This document shows, one piece after another, positions 32,794-37,870 of a stretch of DNA of 64,000 nt. Positions within the stretch are counted from its first letter, which is position 1; each line of letters starts with the position of its first letter. The DNA comes from Geomonas silvestris. GTDB lineage: Bacteria; Desulfobacterota; Desulfuromonadia; Geobacterales; Geobacteraceae. The notes beneath the pieces are model-generated. The model was given only the letters and a program-made list of their open reading frames with translations. It was not told the DNA's origin and ran no database searches. The stretch covers positions 176,931-240,930 of the forward strand of contig NZ_BLXX01000006.1 of NCBI RefSeq assembly GCF_014193515.1, in the 5' to 3' direction. Both the position numbers and the translations under genes were made by a program.

Positions 32794-33798
32794 TCAGGCC
32801 ACCATGGAATAGGGGTCTGCCTGTTTCCACTCGTCGAGAGGAGCCTGTCCGGGCGCCCCCTGGCGGGAGAAGTTCAGCGCCTCCCGCACCACGTAGAGCG
32901 GTCGTCCCTTCGCCTCGTCATAGATGCGGCCGATGTACTCGCCAATGATCCCCAGCATCATCAAGACCACGCCGTTGAAGAAGAGACTCACCGCAATCAT
33001 CGAGGCCCAGCCGGTCACCGTCCCGTTGGTAAAGAGCTTCAGATAGAGCACTACCATCATGTAGATGAATCCGGCCAGCGAAACAGCCCCGCCGAAGTAC
33101 GAGGCGAGCTTGAGCGGCTTGTAGGAAAACGAGGTGATTGCGTCGAAGGCGAACCGGAGCATCTTTTTCAGCGGGTACTTGGTCTCCCCGGCGAAGCGCT
33201 CTTCGCGCACGAACTCTACGGCGGCTTGCCTGAATCCGAGCCAGCTGATGATCCCCCGTACATAGCGGTTGCGCTCCTTCACATTTTTCAGCGCGTCGCA
33301 CACCTTGCGGTCGATGAGGCGGAAATCTCCGGTATCCACCGGGATGTCGACATCGGTGAGTTTCTGCAGCACCCGGTAAAAGGCAGCCGACGTGAAGCGC
33401 TTGAAGAGGGTCTCGCCCTTGCGCGCGGCGCGCCTGCCGTAGACCACGTCGAAGCCCTCGCGCCACTTGGCGATCATGGCGGGGATTACCTCCGGCGGGT
33501 CCTGTAGGTCGGCATCGATGACCACCACCGCGTCGCCGCCGGCGAAGTTCATGCCGGCCGTTATAGCCGTTTGGTGGCCGAAGTTTCGAGAGAAGTCGAT
33601 GAGGCGGGCGCGAGGGTCTGCTGCACAGATAGTTTTAAGTATGGCGCAGGTGGCGTCGCGGCTGCCGTCGTTCACGAAGATGAGCTCATAGCCCTCGCCC
33701 TGCCGCTCCATCACCTCCTTCAGCCTGCGGTACGACTCGTGGAGGACCGCTTCCTCGTTATACACCGGAACTACAACGGAAATAATCGTTTTATTCAT
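32794..33798 (-). CDS. GT2 polyprenyl-phosphate glycosyltransferase, GtrB-like
   Basis: 334 residues from the ATG with AGGTG 6 bases upstream. The GT2 domain has VVPVYNEEAVL, FVNDGSRDAT, DADLQDPPEVI and DTGDFRLIDRKV. Two C-terminal membrane segments (GGAVSLAGFIYMMVVLYL; MIAVSLFFNGVVLMMLGIIG) follow, as in GtrB and DpmI-type enzymes. It should charge undecaprenyl phosphate with a hexose on the inner face for the GtrA and GT-C partners. It is convergent with the GT-C gene. Confidence 0.87.
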   Translation of the reverse strand: MNKTIISVVVPVYNEEAVLHESYRRLKEVMERQGEGYELIFVNDGSRDATCAILKTICAADPRARLIDFSRNFGHQTAITAGMNFAGGDAVVVIDADLQDPPEVIPAMIAKWREGFDVVYGRRAARKGETLFKRFTSAAFYRVLQKLTDVDIPVDTGDFRLIDRKVCDALKNVKERNRYVRGIISWLGFRQAAVEFVREERFAGETKYPLKKMLRFAFDAITSFSYKPLKLASYFGGAVSLAGFIYMMVVLYLKLFTNGTVTGWASMIAVSLFFNGVVLMMLGIIGEYIGRIYDEAKGRPLYVVREALNFSRQGAPGQAPLDEWKQADPYSMVA

Positions 33799-33878
33799 AC
33801 GTTTCACCTCGTGTCCGCGCTTTGTCGCCGCGGCTTAGTTGGCAAGCTTTGGGGCGCACCAGGCGCCGTGGGTACCGC

Positions 33879-36290
33879 TTAGAAAAGCCAGCTCGGCAGC
33901 CATCTGAGCTGGGCCAGGTACTGTTCCTGCACCGGCAGGCCGGACAGGACCGGAAAGAAGCACAAGAAGAACCCGGTCGCAAGGGCGAGGTAGCCGCAGG
34001 CAACCAGGCGCGCTCCTCTTCCGGGGAGCTCCACTGCCTTTAACGTCGCCACCAGACACATGATCACGAACGGCACGCTGGAAAAAAAGTGGTAGATGAA
34101 GGCGAGCCGGTTGATGCCAACCCAGGGGAGGTACTGGAACAAAAGTGCGACCAAAACGATACCCAGCCGCGCGTCGCGCCTACGGAAAGCTAGGATGCCG
34201 GCACCGGCTACCGCCGGGAGCGAGAGCCAGAATATCGCGGGATTGCCGAAGCAGGCGATGGTGGAAACGGTCCCCGCCGCATTGCCCGGACCGGTGAACA
34301 TCCACACGGGGCGCAGGTCCAGCGGCCAGGTCCACCAGGCAGAGGAGAAGGGGTGCACCGCTTTAAGGGTACGGTGATAGTTGAGCATATGTTCCTGAAG
34401 GCGCACCACATCGGCAAGTCCGTGCCCCGGCCCCGGCAGCGCAAGAAAAGGGAGGTAGGCCAACAGGTAGATCGCCGCTGGAATTGCCCCGAAAGCGACA
34501 AGGCAGACACCGACCCGCCGCAGCACGAACCGAAGCCAAACGCCCGGGAAGGCCCCTGACACCAACTCGGCGAGGGTCTTCAGGATCACCAGCAGGAGCA
34601 TGCCGCCGCCGGCGTAGAGCACGATCCACTTGCATGCCGCCCCGATGCCGAAGGCCGTGCCCGCCAAAAACAGGGTGGCATTGGTGCTGCGGGGCGGCAG
34701 TTCGCCCTCGCGGGGAAAGAGGTCGAGCACGAAGTAGTACAAAACCAGGATGAAGAAGACGCCAAACACGTCGATCACTGCCACCCGGGTCTGGGTGAAA
34801 CGCATGAAATCGGCCAGCATGAGAAACGCGGCGCAGAAAGCGTAGAAGCGGTCCCGGAAGAGTTTCAGCCCGAAGAGGTAGACAAGCGGCACCAGCGCGA
34901 CCCCGAAGAGCACGCCGGCGATGCGCCAGCCGAAAGGGTTCATGCCGAACAGGGCGATACCCGAGGCGATCAGGAGTTTTCCCAGGGGCGGATGGGTCGT
35001 TTCGTAAGGTTCGACACCGTTGAGCATCTCCCAGGCGCTGCGGGCGTGGTAGATTTCATCGAAGTAGAACCCGGTCCAAAAGGACGGGGCATATTCGAAG
35101 CAGTCCTGCTCGTCGATGAGGTTTTCCGGCTTGCCCCGATCGGCGGCCGAGAGGTTACTGGATCCGATGCGCAGGCCGGGTAGCGGCGCGGTGCTCCCCT
35201 TCTCGACCAGGGCGATCTCGTTGAGCCGACCTCCGGGAACATCGGCCCTGAGGCGCACGGCGCTGGTACGCACTGCAACCTCCAGATACTTCCAGGCACC
35301 GACCTGATCCTTGGCAAAGCTGGCCAGGTCTACAAAATCTCCTCCGGGCCCTCGAGCGGACACGGTGAACCGCCCCAGGTCGGGGGCGCCGCTGTCGATG
35401 CCGCTGAAGTAATAGATCCGGGACAACTCGGCCTCCCGGCCCAGTTCGATGGTCACCGAGTTGCCGGCTACGGCGCTTTGCCAGCCAGATTCCGGGGCAT
35501 GGTGCCCCCCCAGGTGGAACAGAGACACGGCCAGACATACAGCGCTCAGGGCCAACAGTATACCGGCATCGACCCGGTCCAGTCCCGCACCCGACGGCGC
35601 GACAGTGCAAGCGGTCGGTGCCTCCTTGCACCTGCCGGGACCTTTGCTGCGAAGATACCCCCCTAAAAGGAGCAGTACCAGCCCGAACGCTGCGCAGGCG
35701 ACCAGATCCAGACCTCCCGCCGAACGACCGGTGCCGCCGACCGGCGCTGCCCCAACCGACTCGGGCCGAAGCGCTGCTACCGCGACCCCTGGCGGCGCGA
35801 GATCCATCTTTTGGACCTCCACATCCTTAAACCAGGCCGTACCGCTGTTCATACTGCCGTACCCGCCGAGTCCCACGGTGACCTCGAGGGTGGACTGATT
35901 CTTCCCGGTTTGCCCGTAGAACTCCACGGACTGCCACCCACCGGTTCCTGTCACGCTGCGAGAACCCGCCAGGATACCTGAAACCGAGATGCCCGCGCCC
36001 CGCTCCTGGACGCCAACCTGCTCCGTGCGCAACCGGCAGGATAAACGGTACACCTTCTCAGGTTCCACCTGCATTCGACGCACATAGCGGGCGTCGTTGG
36101 GGACCTGCGAACTGATGCACAGTACGCCCCCCTGTTCCTTAAAGAGTGATGAGCCCTTCCCGGCGGAGGCATTCCAGTCGTACTTCGTCCAGGCAGCGCT
36201 CCCGACGCTGGCGGCCGCTGCCAGGCAGTCTCCCGCCGACGTGGACACAAGTAGCACAGCTATAAGAACGGCTCGTTTTAGTACGGACAT
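33879..36290 (-). CDS. PMT-family (GT39) protein mannosyltransferase with extra sugar-binding-like domains
   Basis: 803 residues from the ATG that begins a signal sequence (MSVLKRAVLIAVLLV...); a longer frame upstream lacks a site. A jelly-roll-like domain comes first (about 30-165, including YRLSCRLRTEQVG and ...SVEFYGQTG). One helix follows, then a discoidin-like stretch (about 260-350), then the PMT core with FDEIYHARSAWEML, THPPLGKLL and FRFTQTR-like loops (LADFMRFTQTRVAVIDVFG), and membrane helices to the end. It should transfer a hexose from polyprenyl phosphate to an exported acceptor. It lies beside gtrB. Confidence 0.82.
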   Translation of the reverse strand: MSVLKRAVLIAVLLVSTSAGDCLAAAASVGSAAWTKYDWNASAGKGSSLFKEQGGVLCISSQVPNDARYVRRMQVEPEKVYRLSCRLRTEQVGVQERGAGISVSGILAGSRSVTGTGGWQSVEFYGQTGKNQSTLEVTVGLGGYGSMNSGTAWFKDVEVQKMDLAPPGVAVAALRPESVGAAPVGGTGRSAGGLDLVACAAFGLVLLLLGGYLRSKGPGRCKEAPTACTVAPSGAGLDRVDAGILLALSAVCLAVSLFHLGGHHAPESGWQSAVAGNSVTIELGREAELSRIYYFSGIDSGAPDLGRFTVSARGPGGDFVDLASFAKDQVGAWKYLEVAVRTSAVRLRADVPGGRLNEIALVEKGSTAPLPGLRIGSSNLSAADRGKPENLIDEQDCFEYAPSFWTGFYFDEIYHARSAWEMLNGVEPYETTHPPLGKLLIASGIALFGMNPFGWRIAGVLFGVALVPLVYLFGLKLFRDRFYAFCAAFLMLADFMRFTQTRVAVIDVFGVFFILVLYYFVLDLFPREGELPPRSTNATLFLAGTAFGIGAACKWIVLYAGGGMLLLVILKTLAELVSGAFPGVWLRFVLRRVGVCLVAFGAIPAAIYLLAYLPFLALPGPGHGLADVVRLQEHMLNYHRTLKAVHPFSSAWWTWPLDLRPVWMFTGPGNAAGTVSTIACFGNPAIFWLSLPAVAGAGILAFRRRDARLGIVLVALLFQYLPWVGINRLAFIYHFFSSVPFVIMCLVATLKAVELPGRGARLVACGYLALATGFFLCFFPVLSGLPVQEQYLAQLRWLPSWLF

Positions 36291-36358: not shown

Positions 36359-36391
36359 AAAAAGTCCGGGAGAGCCTGGTGGCTCTCCCGG
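36359..36391 (-). terminator. Rho-independent terminator of the cytochrome gene
   Basis: On the minus strand CCGGGAGAGCC and GGCTCTCCCGG form an 11-bp stem with a 4-base loop, followed by ACTTTTT. It ends the riboswitch-controlled transcript ahead of the PMT gene. Confidence 0.9.
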
Positions 36392-36441
36392 ATGCGTCGC
36401 ATCTTTTCATGGCAAACCGGGGCAACCGGCGTTACCGAGCA

Positions 36442-36957
36442 TTACTGACCGGCGGCAAGAGCGCTGAGCTGAGCTGCACTCAGGGTTATGGAGCCCATGC
36501 CCCCCCTGTTTGCACTGATGGCTGCCTGGATAGTGGACGCCGTGGCACCCTGCTTAGAAGATCCGTGGCAGCCGGAGCAGTACGAGTTGTAGAGTGCCCA
36601 GGTTTTAACAGGGGCCGGAGTCGGAGTCGGTGCCGGAGTCGGTGCCGGAGTCGGTGCCGGAGTCGGGGTCGGCTTGGGAGTCGGTGCCGGGGTCGGTGCC
36701 GGGGTCGGCTTGGGAGTCGGTGCCGGAGTCGGTGCCGGGGTCGGCTTGGGGGTCGGCTTGGGGGTCGGAGCCGGGGTCGGGCGGGGAGTCGGCCGGGGGG
36801 TCGGAGTCGGCCGGGGAGTGCGCCTGTCATCATCGCCCCTGCGGCTATAACCGGTGTGGGAACGCTCGCTCGAGTCGTCGCCATAGCCGGTTGCTGCGAA
36901 GCCTGCGGAAATCATGCTGACTGCTACGAGGAAAATGAGAGCTTTTTTGGATTTCAT
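36442..36957 (-). CDS. PgcA-like c-type cytochrome, Pro-Thr repeat linker and one heme
   Basis: 171 residues with AAGGAG 9 bases ahead of the ATG. The signal peptide is about 1-26. A basic segment ([10 protein letters not shown]) and about 70 residues of Pro-Thr repeats (TPxPTPxP units, 36600-36835) lead to a small heme domain with CSGCH and a Met ([12 protein letters not shown]) as likely sixth ligand. Geobacter PgcA has the same building plan but three heme domains. Secretion to the cell surface for extracellular electron transfer is inferred. The leader carries three tandem riboswitches. Confidence 0.8.
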
Positions 36958-37157: not shown

Positions 37158-37270
37158 AAAAATAGCCGGGGCCTCGTATCAGGTCTGATATTCGGCATCC
37201 CGGCTGTCTTCAAGAAGACCCTAGGCTTTCCGCCCCATCCTCGCGAATGGTTTAGTATTGTCGTTATCGT
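37158..37270 (-). ncRNA. GEMM-I (GEMM-Ib type) riboswitch 1, gene-proximal
   Basis: On the minus strand AAACCATTCGCGAGGATGG forms P2 with its tetraloop, then GGCGGAAAGCCTAGGGTCTTC and GAAGACAGCCGGGATGCC (split here) give the rest of the aptamer. The last part AGCCGGGATGCC also pairs with GGCCCCGGCT followed by ATTTTT, a terminator. The base matching Vc2 position 20 is A, as in cGAMP-binding members. Confidence 0.88.
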
Positions 37271-37359
37271 TACATCTTGCTGCTACTGTAAGACGTTGAA
37301 CGCTGGTTTTTGGCAGGTCCTCCCCGTGGGTGTTTGCGGGCCTCGGCGTATGTGGACAT

Positions 37360-37475
37360 AAAAATAGCCGGGGCCGCCATATCTGGAATATGATATTTCG
37401 GCATCCCGGCTGTCTTCCAAGAAGATCCTAGGCTTTCCGCCCCACCCTCGCGGATGGTTTAGTATTGTCGTGTAT
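37360..37475 (-). ncRNA. GEMM-I (GEMM-Ib type) riboswitch 2
   Basis: Same aptamer on the minus strand with AAACCATCCGCGAGGGTGG, GAAAGCCTAGGATCTTC and GACAGCCGGGATGCC. The downstream arm GGCCCCGGCT plus ATTTTTAT makes a terminator. Compensatory changes in P2 (ATCC/GGGT against ATTC/GGAT in copy 1) support a selected structure. Position 20 is A. Confidence 0.9.
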
Positions 37476-37523
37476 CGTTTCTACTGGTTATTTGGATTTG
37501 GTACTGAGCTAATCTTGACTACA

Positions 37524-37640
37524 ATACAAAAAAGCCGGGAAGCCGCATATCTCGATTGATATTTCGGCATCCCGGCTGTCTTTCAAGAAGATCCTAGGCT
37601 TTCCGCCCCACCCTCACGGATGGTTTAGTATTGTCGTGTA
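37524..37640 (-). ncRNA. GEMM-I (GEMM-Ib type) riboswitch 3, promoter-proximal
   Basis: Same aptamer with AAACCATCCGTGAGGGTGG and GAAAGCCTAGGATCTTC. The terminator arm is GGCTTCCCGGCT followed by TTTTTGT; the loop differs from copies 1 and 2 while the stem is kept. It starts about 30 bases after the predicted transcription start. Position 20 is A. Confidence 0.9.
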
Positions 37641-37675
37641 TCTGATGCAAAGTGTTTTTTGTCTGGTCTGAGCGG

Positions 37676-37705
37676 ACTATACCAAAACTTAAAAAATAAA
37701 GTCAA
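37676..37705 (-). promoter_or_regulatory. sigma-70 promoter for the riboswitch-cytochrome transcript
   Basis: On the minus strand TTGACT (37705-37700), 18 bp of AT-rich spacer, TATAGT (37681-37676). The predicted start is at about 37669, so the transcript passes riboswitches 3, 2 and 1 in that order before the gene. Confidence 0.7.
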
Positions 37706-37769: not shown

Positions 37770-37870
37770 AAAAATGGCGCCGCACACCTGGATCGCTATT
37801 CGGCGTCCCGGCTGTCTTCCAAGAAGTATTCGCCTCCATCCTCGCGAATGGTTAAGTGCAGCGTGTATCT
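37770..37870 (-). pseudogene. decayed fourth GEMM riboswitch
   Basis: The minus strand keeps AACCATTCGCGAGGATGG and CTTCTTGGAAGACAGCCGGG, and a GC-rich hairpin followed by ATTTTTTG. The conserved segment GAAAGCCTAGGATC between the two arms is missing. It lies upstream of the promoter used by the other three copies. Confidence 0.7.

What the first reader, a model, noticed from the sequence alone, without database searches (positions are those of the whole stretch)
37158..37705. Three intact GEMM riboswitches in series ahead of one cytochrome gene
Seen: three aptamers of about 115 bp on the minus strand, each overlapping its own terminator, behind one good promoter (37676-37705) and all upstream of the heme-c gene at 36957. 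Known: GEMM-I riboswitches bind cyclic dinucleotides, and Geobacter members ahead of cytochrome genes often bind 3',3'-cGAMP. Inference: polymerase must escape three terminators in a row, so output should rise steeply with ligand, like a multi-input AND gate with very low leak. Copies differ in loops but keep stems, which argues for selection rather than recent duplication.
Basis: partly seen in the sequence, partly recalled or inferred. Interest (0 to 1): 0.88.

Follow-up and report, generated by a model that had tools for sequence, protein, structure and literature searches.

The report
Triple cGAMP-type riboswitch before a cytochrome
A bacterium of the Geobacter group appears to control one electron-transfer protein with three copies of the same RNA sensor in a row, a known kind of arrangement that at least one relative seems to have built separately before a related gene.

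Summary
Rfam finds three complete GEMM-I aptamers on the minus strand (46.5-50.3 bits, cut-off 35). Each overlaps its own terminator (-28.1, -25.8, -21.3 kcal/mol), behind one promoter-like site and before a one-heme, Pro/Thr-rich cytochrome gene. All have A at the ligand position, so the expected ligand is 3',3'-cGAMP. A fourth, decayed copy lies upstream of the promoter (37866-37799).

One ligand at three switches is a 'pseudo-cooperative' device, not a multi-input AND gate. A simple model gives far lower leak but little extra steepness (10-90% span 81-fold to 32-fold). Copies 1 and 2 are sister duplicates (75 of 77 identical) sharing a rare change that breaks a stem pair.

Triple c-di-GMP-I and double cGAMP arrays are published, so this is a new member of a known kind. 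New in these calls: four homologous one-heme cytochrome genes in other genera also carry two or three copies, and the triplet in G022 looks independent. Close homologues of the neighbouring O-mannosyltransferase occur in 5 of 48 family genomes, each within 4 kb of such a cytochrome. That suggests, without proving, a cGAMP-controlled glycosylated cytochrome. No expression or binding data were available.

The parts
37676..37705 (-). promoter-like site TTGACT-18-TATAGT, TG before the -10
   Evidence: consensus scan; coordinates; predicted only
37563..37639 (-). GEMM-I copy 1 aptamer (A at ligand position; GGATC in P3)
   Evidence: RF01051 46.6 bits; R1 85.3 bits
37528..37577 (-). terminator of copy 1, overlapping the aptamer 3' strand
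   Evidence: -28.1 kcal/mol stem plus U-tract
37397..37473 (-). GEMM-I copy 2 aptamer (A at ligand position; GGATC in P3)
   Evidence: RF01051 46.5 bits; R1 85.6 bits
37360..37411 (-). terminator of copy 2, overlapping the aptamer 3' strand
   Evidence: -25.8 kcal/mol
37191..37266 (-). GEMM-I copy 3 aptamer (A at ligand position; consensus GGGTC)
   Evidence: RF01051 50.3 bits; R1 91.0 bits
37158..37205 (-). terminator of copy 3, overlapping the aptamer 3' strand
   Evidence: -21.3 kcal/mol
37799..37866 (-). decayed fourth copy, lacking the 5' strand of P3, upstream of the promoter
   Evidence: R1 26.7 bits, E 1.7e-5; alignment; not reported by Rfam
37776..37808 (-). weak terminator-like remnant of the decayed copy
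   Evidence: -13.9 kcal/mol; also in the scan
36442..36957 (-). one-heme c-type cytochrome, 171 aa, signal-like N-terminus, Pro/Thr-rich linker, C-terminal CSGCH domain
   Evidence: Pfam Cytochrome_CBB3 E 2.8e-4, below the Pfam cut-off
36359..36392 (-). strong intrinsic terminator after the cytochrome gene
   Evidence: 12-bp stem
33879..36290 (-). PMT-family (protein O-mannosyltransferase-like) gene, likely start ATG 36290; possible partner of the cytochrome
   Evidence: Pfam PMT_4TMC 73.7 bits, PMT 50.9 bits, both over cut-off; NCBIfam PMT equivalog 100 bits, far below its cut-off of 800
32794..33807 (-). family-2 glycosyltransferase, polyprenyl-phosphate sugar synthase-like; possible partner
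   Evidence: Pfam Glycos_transf_2; best NCBIfam PgfS 288.6 bits, below its cut-off of 500

Best explanation
A 5' leader of about 700 nt holds three complete, independently folding cGAMP-type GEMM-I (GEMM-Ib) riboswitches in series. In each one the 3' strand of the aptamer is also the 5' strand of an intrinsic terminator. Without ligand the terminator forms and polymerase stops; with 3',3'-cGAMP the aptamer holds that strand and polymerase passes. The cytochrome gene is transcribed only if all three switches are passed, so leak is the product of three leaks and the dose response is shifted and slightly steepened (pseudo-cooperative ON switch). Shown by sequence: the aptamers, the A at the ligand position, the overlapping terminators, the order. 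Inferred: ligand, ON direction, one shared transcript, size of the effect.
For: RF01051 matches and R1 matches. A at the ligand position in all three, as in 22 of 27 GEMM-I of this genome; a G-to-A change there is the one published for c-AMP-GMP binding (PMC9481103 passages). Terminators that overlap the aptamers, the layout of the pilM cGAMP ON switch, where the terminator takes up the ligand-pairing C (PMC9262584 passages). In G. sulfurreducens, tandem GEMM-Ib before OmcAHG lose read-through when gacA is deleted (PMC6456294 passages). One of 27 readable GGDEF loci here has GHxxGS in place of GHxxGD (L125), the cGAMP-synthase signature as I recall it. No minus-strand ORF of 80 aa or more lies between the copies and no minus-strand promoter-like site. 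In G022 the same gene family has three copies only 139-140 nt apart behind a promoter-like site directly upstream of copy 1 and none between.
Against: No binding, transcription or expression data. The promoter is a consensus match, and the scan found no minus-strand promoter ahead of the G033 doublet and only a weak site overlapping copy 2 in G031, so this scan is not a reliable detector. Copies 1 and 2 carry GGATC, which loses a P3 pair kept in the other 112 of 114 aptamers examined, so they may bind poorly.
Confidence: 0.84

Rival explanations
1. Only copy 3 (or copies 2 and 3) matters: copies 1 and 2 are weakened aptamers on the way to becoming relics like the fourth copy, and act mainly as constitutive terminators that lower expression.
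For: Copies 1 and 2 share GGATC, unique to them among 114 aptamers; they have the strongest terminators (-28.1, -25.8 against -21.3); a fourth copy has already decayed.
Against: Outside that site copies 1 and 2 keep the conserved core and score 85 bits with an independent model. If they could not be opened, the gene would be nearly silent from this promoter.
Confidence: 0.2
2. Each copy, or the last one, has its own promoter, so a transcript contains only one or two switches.
For: The linkers are about 50 and 93 nt long, long enough to hold a promoter; promoters of other sigma factors would not be seen by the scan.
Against: No minus-strand sigma-70-like site between copies; homologous arrays in G022 and G024 are packed at about 140 nt spacing.
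Confidence: 0.1
3. The ligand is c-di-GMP, not cGAMP.
For: The Rfam family is named for c-di-GMP; the genome also has at least 26 other readable GGDEF loci and 5 G-type GEMM-I.
Against: A at the ligand position in all three copies; published selectivity of this type (about 1200-fold for the pgcA switch, PMC6456294 passages).
Confidence: 0.06
4. The third copy is a neutral duplication with no selected role.
For: Copies 1 and 2 are sisters (SH-aLRT 82); triplets are uncommon, 3 of 287 leaders in the genus.
Against: Aptamers and terminators are kept while linkers have diverged; a triplet stands before a homologous gene in another genus, with a different pair as sisters (G022).
Confidence: 0.25

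Closest known systems
GEMM-Ib (cGAMP) riboswitches of Geobacter, single and tandem, e.g. pgcA (GSU1761) and OmcAHG (GSU2885) leaders
   Same: Same aptamer type with A at the ligand position, same overlapping terminator, cytochrome targets, tandem doublets known (PMC6456294 passages).
   Different: Three complete copies plus a decayed one; copies 1 and 2 carry GGATC; the gene is a one-heme Pro/Thr-rich cytochrome.
[quoted passage not shown]
   Same: Three complete GEMM-I switches in series with own terminators; the triplet was measured to be more stringent than doublet or single (PMC4759541 passages).
   Different: c-di-GMP, Gram-positive, csp surface-protein operon.
Pseudo-cooperative tandem riboswitches (survey: 347 doublets and 12 triplets of c-di-GMP-I)
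   Same: Same class of device: independent switches for one ligand in one leader (PMC9481103 passages).
   Different: I could not see which species the 12 triplets are from, so this triplet or close relatives may already be among them.
PgcA, extracellular cytochrome of G. sulfurreducens
   Same: Secreted cytochrome with PTx repeats and a GEMM-I leader; one-heme homologues are noted in G. metallireducens (PMC5732950 passages).
   Different: PgcA is a three-heme lipoprotein; this protein is 171 aa, one heme, with no lipobox cysteine in its N-terminus.

Membership tests
GEMM-I / c-di-GMP-I riboswitch (RF01051) | score over the family's gathering threshold, full-length model match | tested here: met
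   46.6, 46.5, 50.3 bits against 35, model 1-87 of 87. The decayed fourth copy does not reach it.
GEMM-Ib (cGAMP) subtype | A instead of G at the ligand-contacting position | tested here: met
   AATACT in place of AAGGC in all three.
GEMM-Ib (cGAMP) subtype | selective binding of 3',3'-cGAMP | not testable with these tools
   needs in-line probing or reporter assay
GEMM-Ib (cGAMP) subtype | conserved P3 pair next to the AG bulge (G in GGGTC) | tested here: inconclusive
   met in copy 3, not met in copies 1 and 2 (GGATC); 112 of 114 aptamers have GGGTC
Pseudo-cooperative tandem riboswitch | two or more complete riboswitches of one class, each with its own expression platform, no ORF between | tested here: met
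   three aptamers each with an overlapping terminator; no minus-strand ORF of 80 aa or more between
Pseudo-cooperative tandem riboswitch | all copies on one transcript | tested here: inconclusive
   one promoter-like site upstream and none between; no transcript data
Pseudo-cooperative tandem riboswitch | steeper or more stringent dose response than a single copy | not testable with these tools
   model only
PgcA family | Pro-Thr repeats with CxxCH heme motif(s), secreted | tested here: met
   75-residue linker with 35 Pro and 20 Thr, one CxxCH, signal-like N-terminus read by eye
PgcA family | lipoprotein with three hemes, as in G. sulfurreducens | tested here: not met
   one heme; no lipobox cysteine in the N-terminus
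Protein O-mannosyltransferase (neighbour gene) | NCBIfam equivalog cut-off | tested here: not met
   NF058602 100 bits against 800; Pfam PMT and PMT_4TMC domain cut-offs are met

The most novel reading that the evidence does not exclude
The triplet is the control end of a cGAMP-gated glyco-cytochrome module. Leaders of these Pro-rich cytochromes gain GEMM-Ib copies repeatedly because leak of a secreted, iron-demanding protein is costly. In copies 1 and 2 the shared P3 defect plus stronger terminators raise the threshold, so the array is a high-threshold lock rather than three equal gates. The neighbouring PMT-like and GT2 genes put sugars on the Thr-rich linker of the cytochrome, and cGAMP controls both the protein and, at least in G036, its glycosyltransferase.
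Probability: 0.2. Interest if true: 0.72.

Novelty: new member of a known kind. Interest (0 to 1): 0.42.

Why it matters
It is a natural one-ligand, three-copy cGAMP array with a one-heme, c-type cytochrome output, plus natural two-copy and three-copy homologues in other genera, so the question 'why stack identical riboswitches?' can be tested by comparing natural leaders with one, two and three copies. If the link to the PMT-like gene is real, it would tie cGAMP signalling to glycosylation of an extracellular electron-transfer protein, for which I found no report in the searches.

Tried and rejected
Rejected: (1) A fourth working riboswitch: the upstream copy lacks the 5' strand of P3, is not reported by Rfam and lies upstream of the promoter. 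(2) Another RNA element in the 200 nt between copy 3 and the gene: Rfam at E <= 1 gave only the three GEMM matches and one chance-level plus-strand match. (3) The riboswitches as leader of an operon with the PMT gene: a strong terminator at 36392-36359 separates them, so any shared transcript would need read-through. (4) An orthologous locus in the genus: within 19 genomes the heme domain has no match above 62% identity outside the window genome. (5) A family-wide triplet: the window-like triplet pattern matched 1 of 48 family genomes, the window's own; that pattern fixes the spacing and misses the G022 triplet.

Led nowhere or weak: the aptamer tree has only 76-77 informative positions; it does not resolve whether copy 3 or a G009 copy (L168) is closer to copies 1 and 2 (branch support 0), and copy 1 is closer to that G009 copy (93.7%) than to copy 3 (89.7%), against the simpler result. 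No covariation test was made: one search failed on the length of the structure string and was not repeated. The search of PMC8835794 for 'tandem', 'triple' and related words found nothing.

Full report
WHAT IS THERE. The window is contig C6, 176931-240930, of a 5.1 Mb genome in a genus of 19 held genomes. One genus mate, G016, has a contig of 1,611,195 bases with the same array coordinates as Geomonas sp. Red32, so the genus is Geomonas by inference. Rfam finds three GEMM-I aptamers in a row on the minus strand. An independent model from 35 other GEMM-Ib aptamers finds the same three at 85-91 bits and a fourth, decayed copy at 37866-37799 with 26.7 bits, E 1.7e-5. The fourth lacks the 5' strand of P3, has a weaker terminator-like remnant (-13.9 kcal/mol), and lies upstream of the only promoter-like site found on that strand.

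HOW EACH UNIT IS BUILT. In each of the three, AGCCGGGATGCC is the 3' strand of the aptamer and also the 5' strand of a terminator with a U-tract. The two folds exclude each other, as in the pilM cGAMP ON switch (PMC9262584, passages). All three have A where c-di-GMP binders have G; that position is the one published to contact the ligand and to differ in c-AMP-GMP binders (PMC9481103, passages). Of 27 GEMM-I in this genome 22 have A. Of 30 GGDEF loci, 27 gave a readable motif and one of them has GHxxGS (L125), the signature of cGAMP synthases as I recall it; four further GGDEF matches had no locus and were not read.

HOW IT SHOULD WORK. One ligand, three independent terminators: read-through multiplies. 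For independent identical switches the 10-90% span is 81-fold for one, 40-fold for two and 32-fold for three copies, with the midpoint at 1.0, 2.4 and 3.9 times K; a per-switch leak of 10% and maximum of 90% give OFF 0.1, 0.01 and 0.001 and ON 0.90, 0.81 and 0.73. So the main gain is low leak, paid for with maximum output; the extra steepness is small. The measured triplet of B. thuringiensis agrees in direction: 74.0, 25.1 and 8.4% activity at low ligand for one, two and three copies, 90.4, 45.7 and 28.6% at high ligand (PMC4759541, passages).

HISTORY OF THE COPIES. Aptamers 1 and 2 differ at 2 of 77 positions; copy 3 is 91-92% identical to them; each copy's best match among the 26 other GEMM-I of the genome is another copy of this array. 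Copies 1 and 2 share GGATC; the other 112 of 114 distinct A-type aptamers in the loci fetched by then have GGGTC (the 114 are those that fit my search expression). Of six comparisons of linkers beyond the terminators, five are no better than shuffles and one is borderline (7 of 300 shuffles reach it), while tails including the terminators are alike among copies 1-3 (0 of 300 shuffles). A tree of the 114 joins copies 1 and 2 (SH-aLRT 82) but leaves copy 3 unresolved against a G009 copy (support 0). In one search, with a slightly longer aptamer, copy 1 is closer to that G009 copy (93.7%) than to copy 3 (89.7%). So the duplication of copies 1 and 2 is well supported, the origin of copy 3 is not.

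HOW COMMON. In the 19 genus genomes there are 329 matches (328 over the cut-off), in 287 leaders if copies on one strand with starts at most 600 nt apart are joined and ORFs between them are not excluded: 252 single, 30 double, 3 triple, 2 quadruple (each genome scored at most 150 first-look candidates). The other two triplets are G005:C68 and G017:C225; the quadruplets, in G005 and G015, are of the G type.

THE SAME GENE FAMILY ELSEWHERE. I searched the 56-residue heme domain in 48 family genomes (20 with a match) and examined 23 regions, not every row, with the R1 model. One-heme, Pro-rich cytochromes outside the window: eight leaders could be read. G022 has three GEMM-Ib, G031, G033 and G036:C8 two each, G037 one with the contig ending 227 nt upstream, and G029, G030 and G032 none; the leader of G036:C91 is cut off. 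So four of the five with any GEMM-Ib are arrays. Of 14 regions with larger cytochrome or cytochrome-domain genes, six have two copies (G004, G005, G013, G021, G024, G033), four have one nearby (G025, G026, G027, G036:C24) and four have none. In the genus overall, arrays are 35 of 287 leaders. Many of these genomes are close relatives and the base rate comes from another genus, so I give no P value. In G022 copies 2 and 3 are sisters (97.4% identical, SH-aLRT 85) and copy 1 is closer to copies in other genomes, whereas in the window it is copies 1 and 2. The simplest reading is two separate gains of a third copy; support is moderate because the sequences are short.

A POSSIBLE PARTNER. Downstream of a strong terminator (36392-36359) lie a PMT-family gene and a GT2 gene, then, convergent, a membrane ORF and a GtrA gene. 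Close homologues of the PMT (47% identity or more) occur in 5 of 48 family genomes, G000, G029, G030, G032 and G036; weaker partial matches occur in 20 more. In all five the gene is on the same contig within 4 kb of a one-heme Pro-rich cytochrome. In G036:C91 the order is cytochrome, cytochrome, a single GEMM-Ib, PMT, GT2, then convergent ORF and GtrA as in the window. Linkers of cytochromes in PMT genomes have 25-53% Thr plus Ser (6 linkers); those without a close PMT have 6, 11, 14, 25 and 31% (5 linkers). The last two, G037 and one of the G022 pair, are against a strict link; G022 is only 78% complete. The PMT gene fails the NCBIfam equivalog cut-off (100 against 800 bits) while meeting the Pfam domain cut-offs. 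No paper in the library holds Geobacter, cytochrome and O-mannosylation together; six hold PgcA, glycosyl and Geobacter (listing), of which I saw passages of one, which says OmcE filaments are glycosylated (PMC11077965).

COMPARISON WITH WHAT IS KNOWN. Tandem GEMM-Ib doublets are known in G. sulfurreducens, with read-through lost in a gacA deletion (PMC6456294, passages). A survey counted 347 doublets and 12 triplets of c-di-GMP-I (PMC9481103, passages); a second survey finds c-di-GMP riboswitches enriched in tandem (PMC12452182, passages). One paper holds both 'Geomonas' and 'riboswitch' (listing only, not read). So the finding is a real, well-built new member of a known kind. What I did not find described, within, is a cGAMP-type triplet as such, or the recurrent arrays before this cytochrome family; supplementary tables could not be read.

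VERDICT. Observation confirmed, interpretation partly supported. Interest 0.42: solid and testable, little surprise for a riboswitch specialist, with a more surprising but weaker lead in the glycosyltransferase link.

Noticed in passing
window 37799-37866: Decayed fourth GEMM-Ib copy upstream of the promoter, missing the 5' strand of P3.
   Followed up: yes
window 32794-36290: PMT-family O-mannosyltransferase-like gene and GT2 gene next to a Pro/Thr-rich cytochrome; the same neighbourhood recurs in G036, and PMT homologues lie within 4 kb of such cytochromes in G029, G030 and G032.
   Followed up: partly
L235 1432-1506 (G036:C91): A single GEMM-Ib directly before the PMT homologue, after two tandem cytochrome genes each followed by a hairpin.
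   Followed up: partly
L159 and L160 (G005:C18, G015:C30): Four c-di-GMP-type (G) GEMM-I copies on one strand before a gene of unknown function; a short ORF and another hairpin-rich stretch seem to lie between copies 3 and 4 (read by eye).
   Followed up: partly
L161 (G005:C68) and L162 (G017:C225): Two further A-type triplets in the genus; in both the copy nearest the gene shows no obvious U-tract terminator (read by eye).
   Followed up: partly
L214 end and L235 start (G036:C8, G036:C91): Tandem copies of the one-heme cytochrome gene appear to continue to both contig ends, so the array of genes may be collapsed or split by assembly.
   Followed up: no
L166 and L168 (G000:C11, G009:C8): A GEMM-Ib doublet with about 371 nt spacing before a multiheme cytochrome ORF is shared by two species, so that doublet predates their split.
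   Followed up: partly
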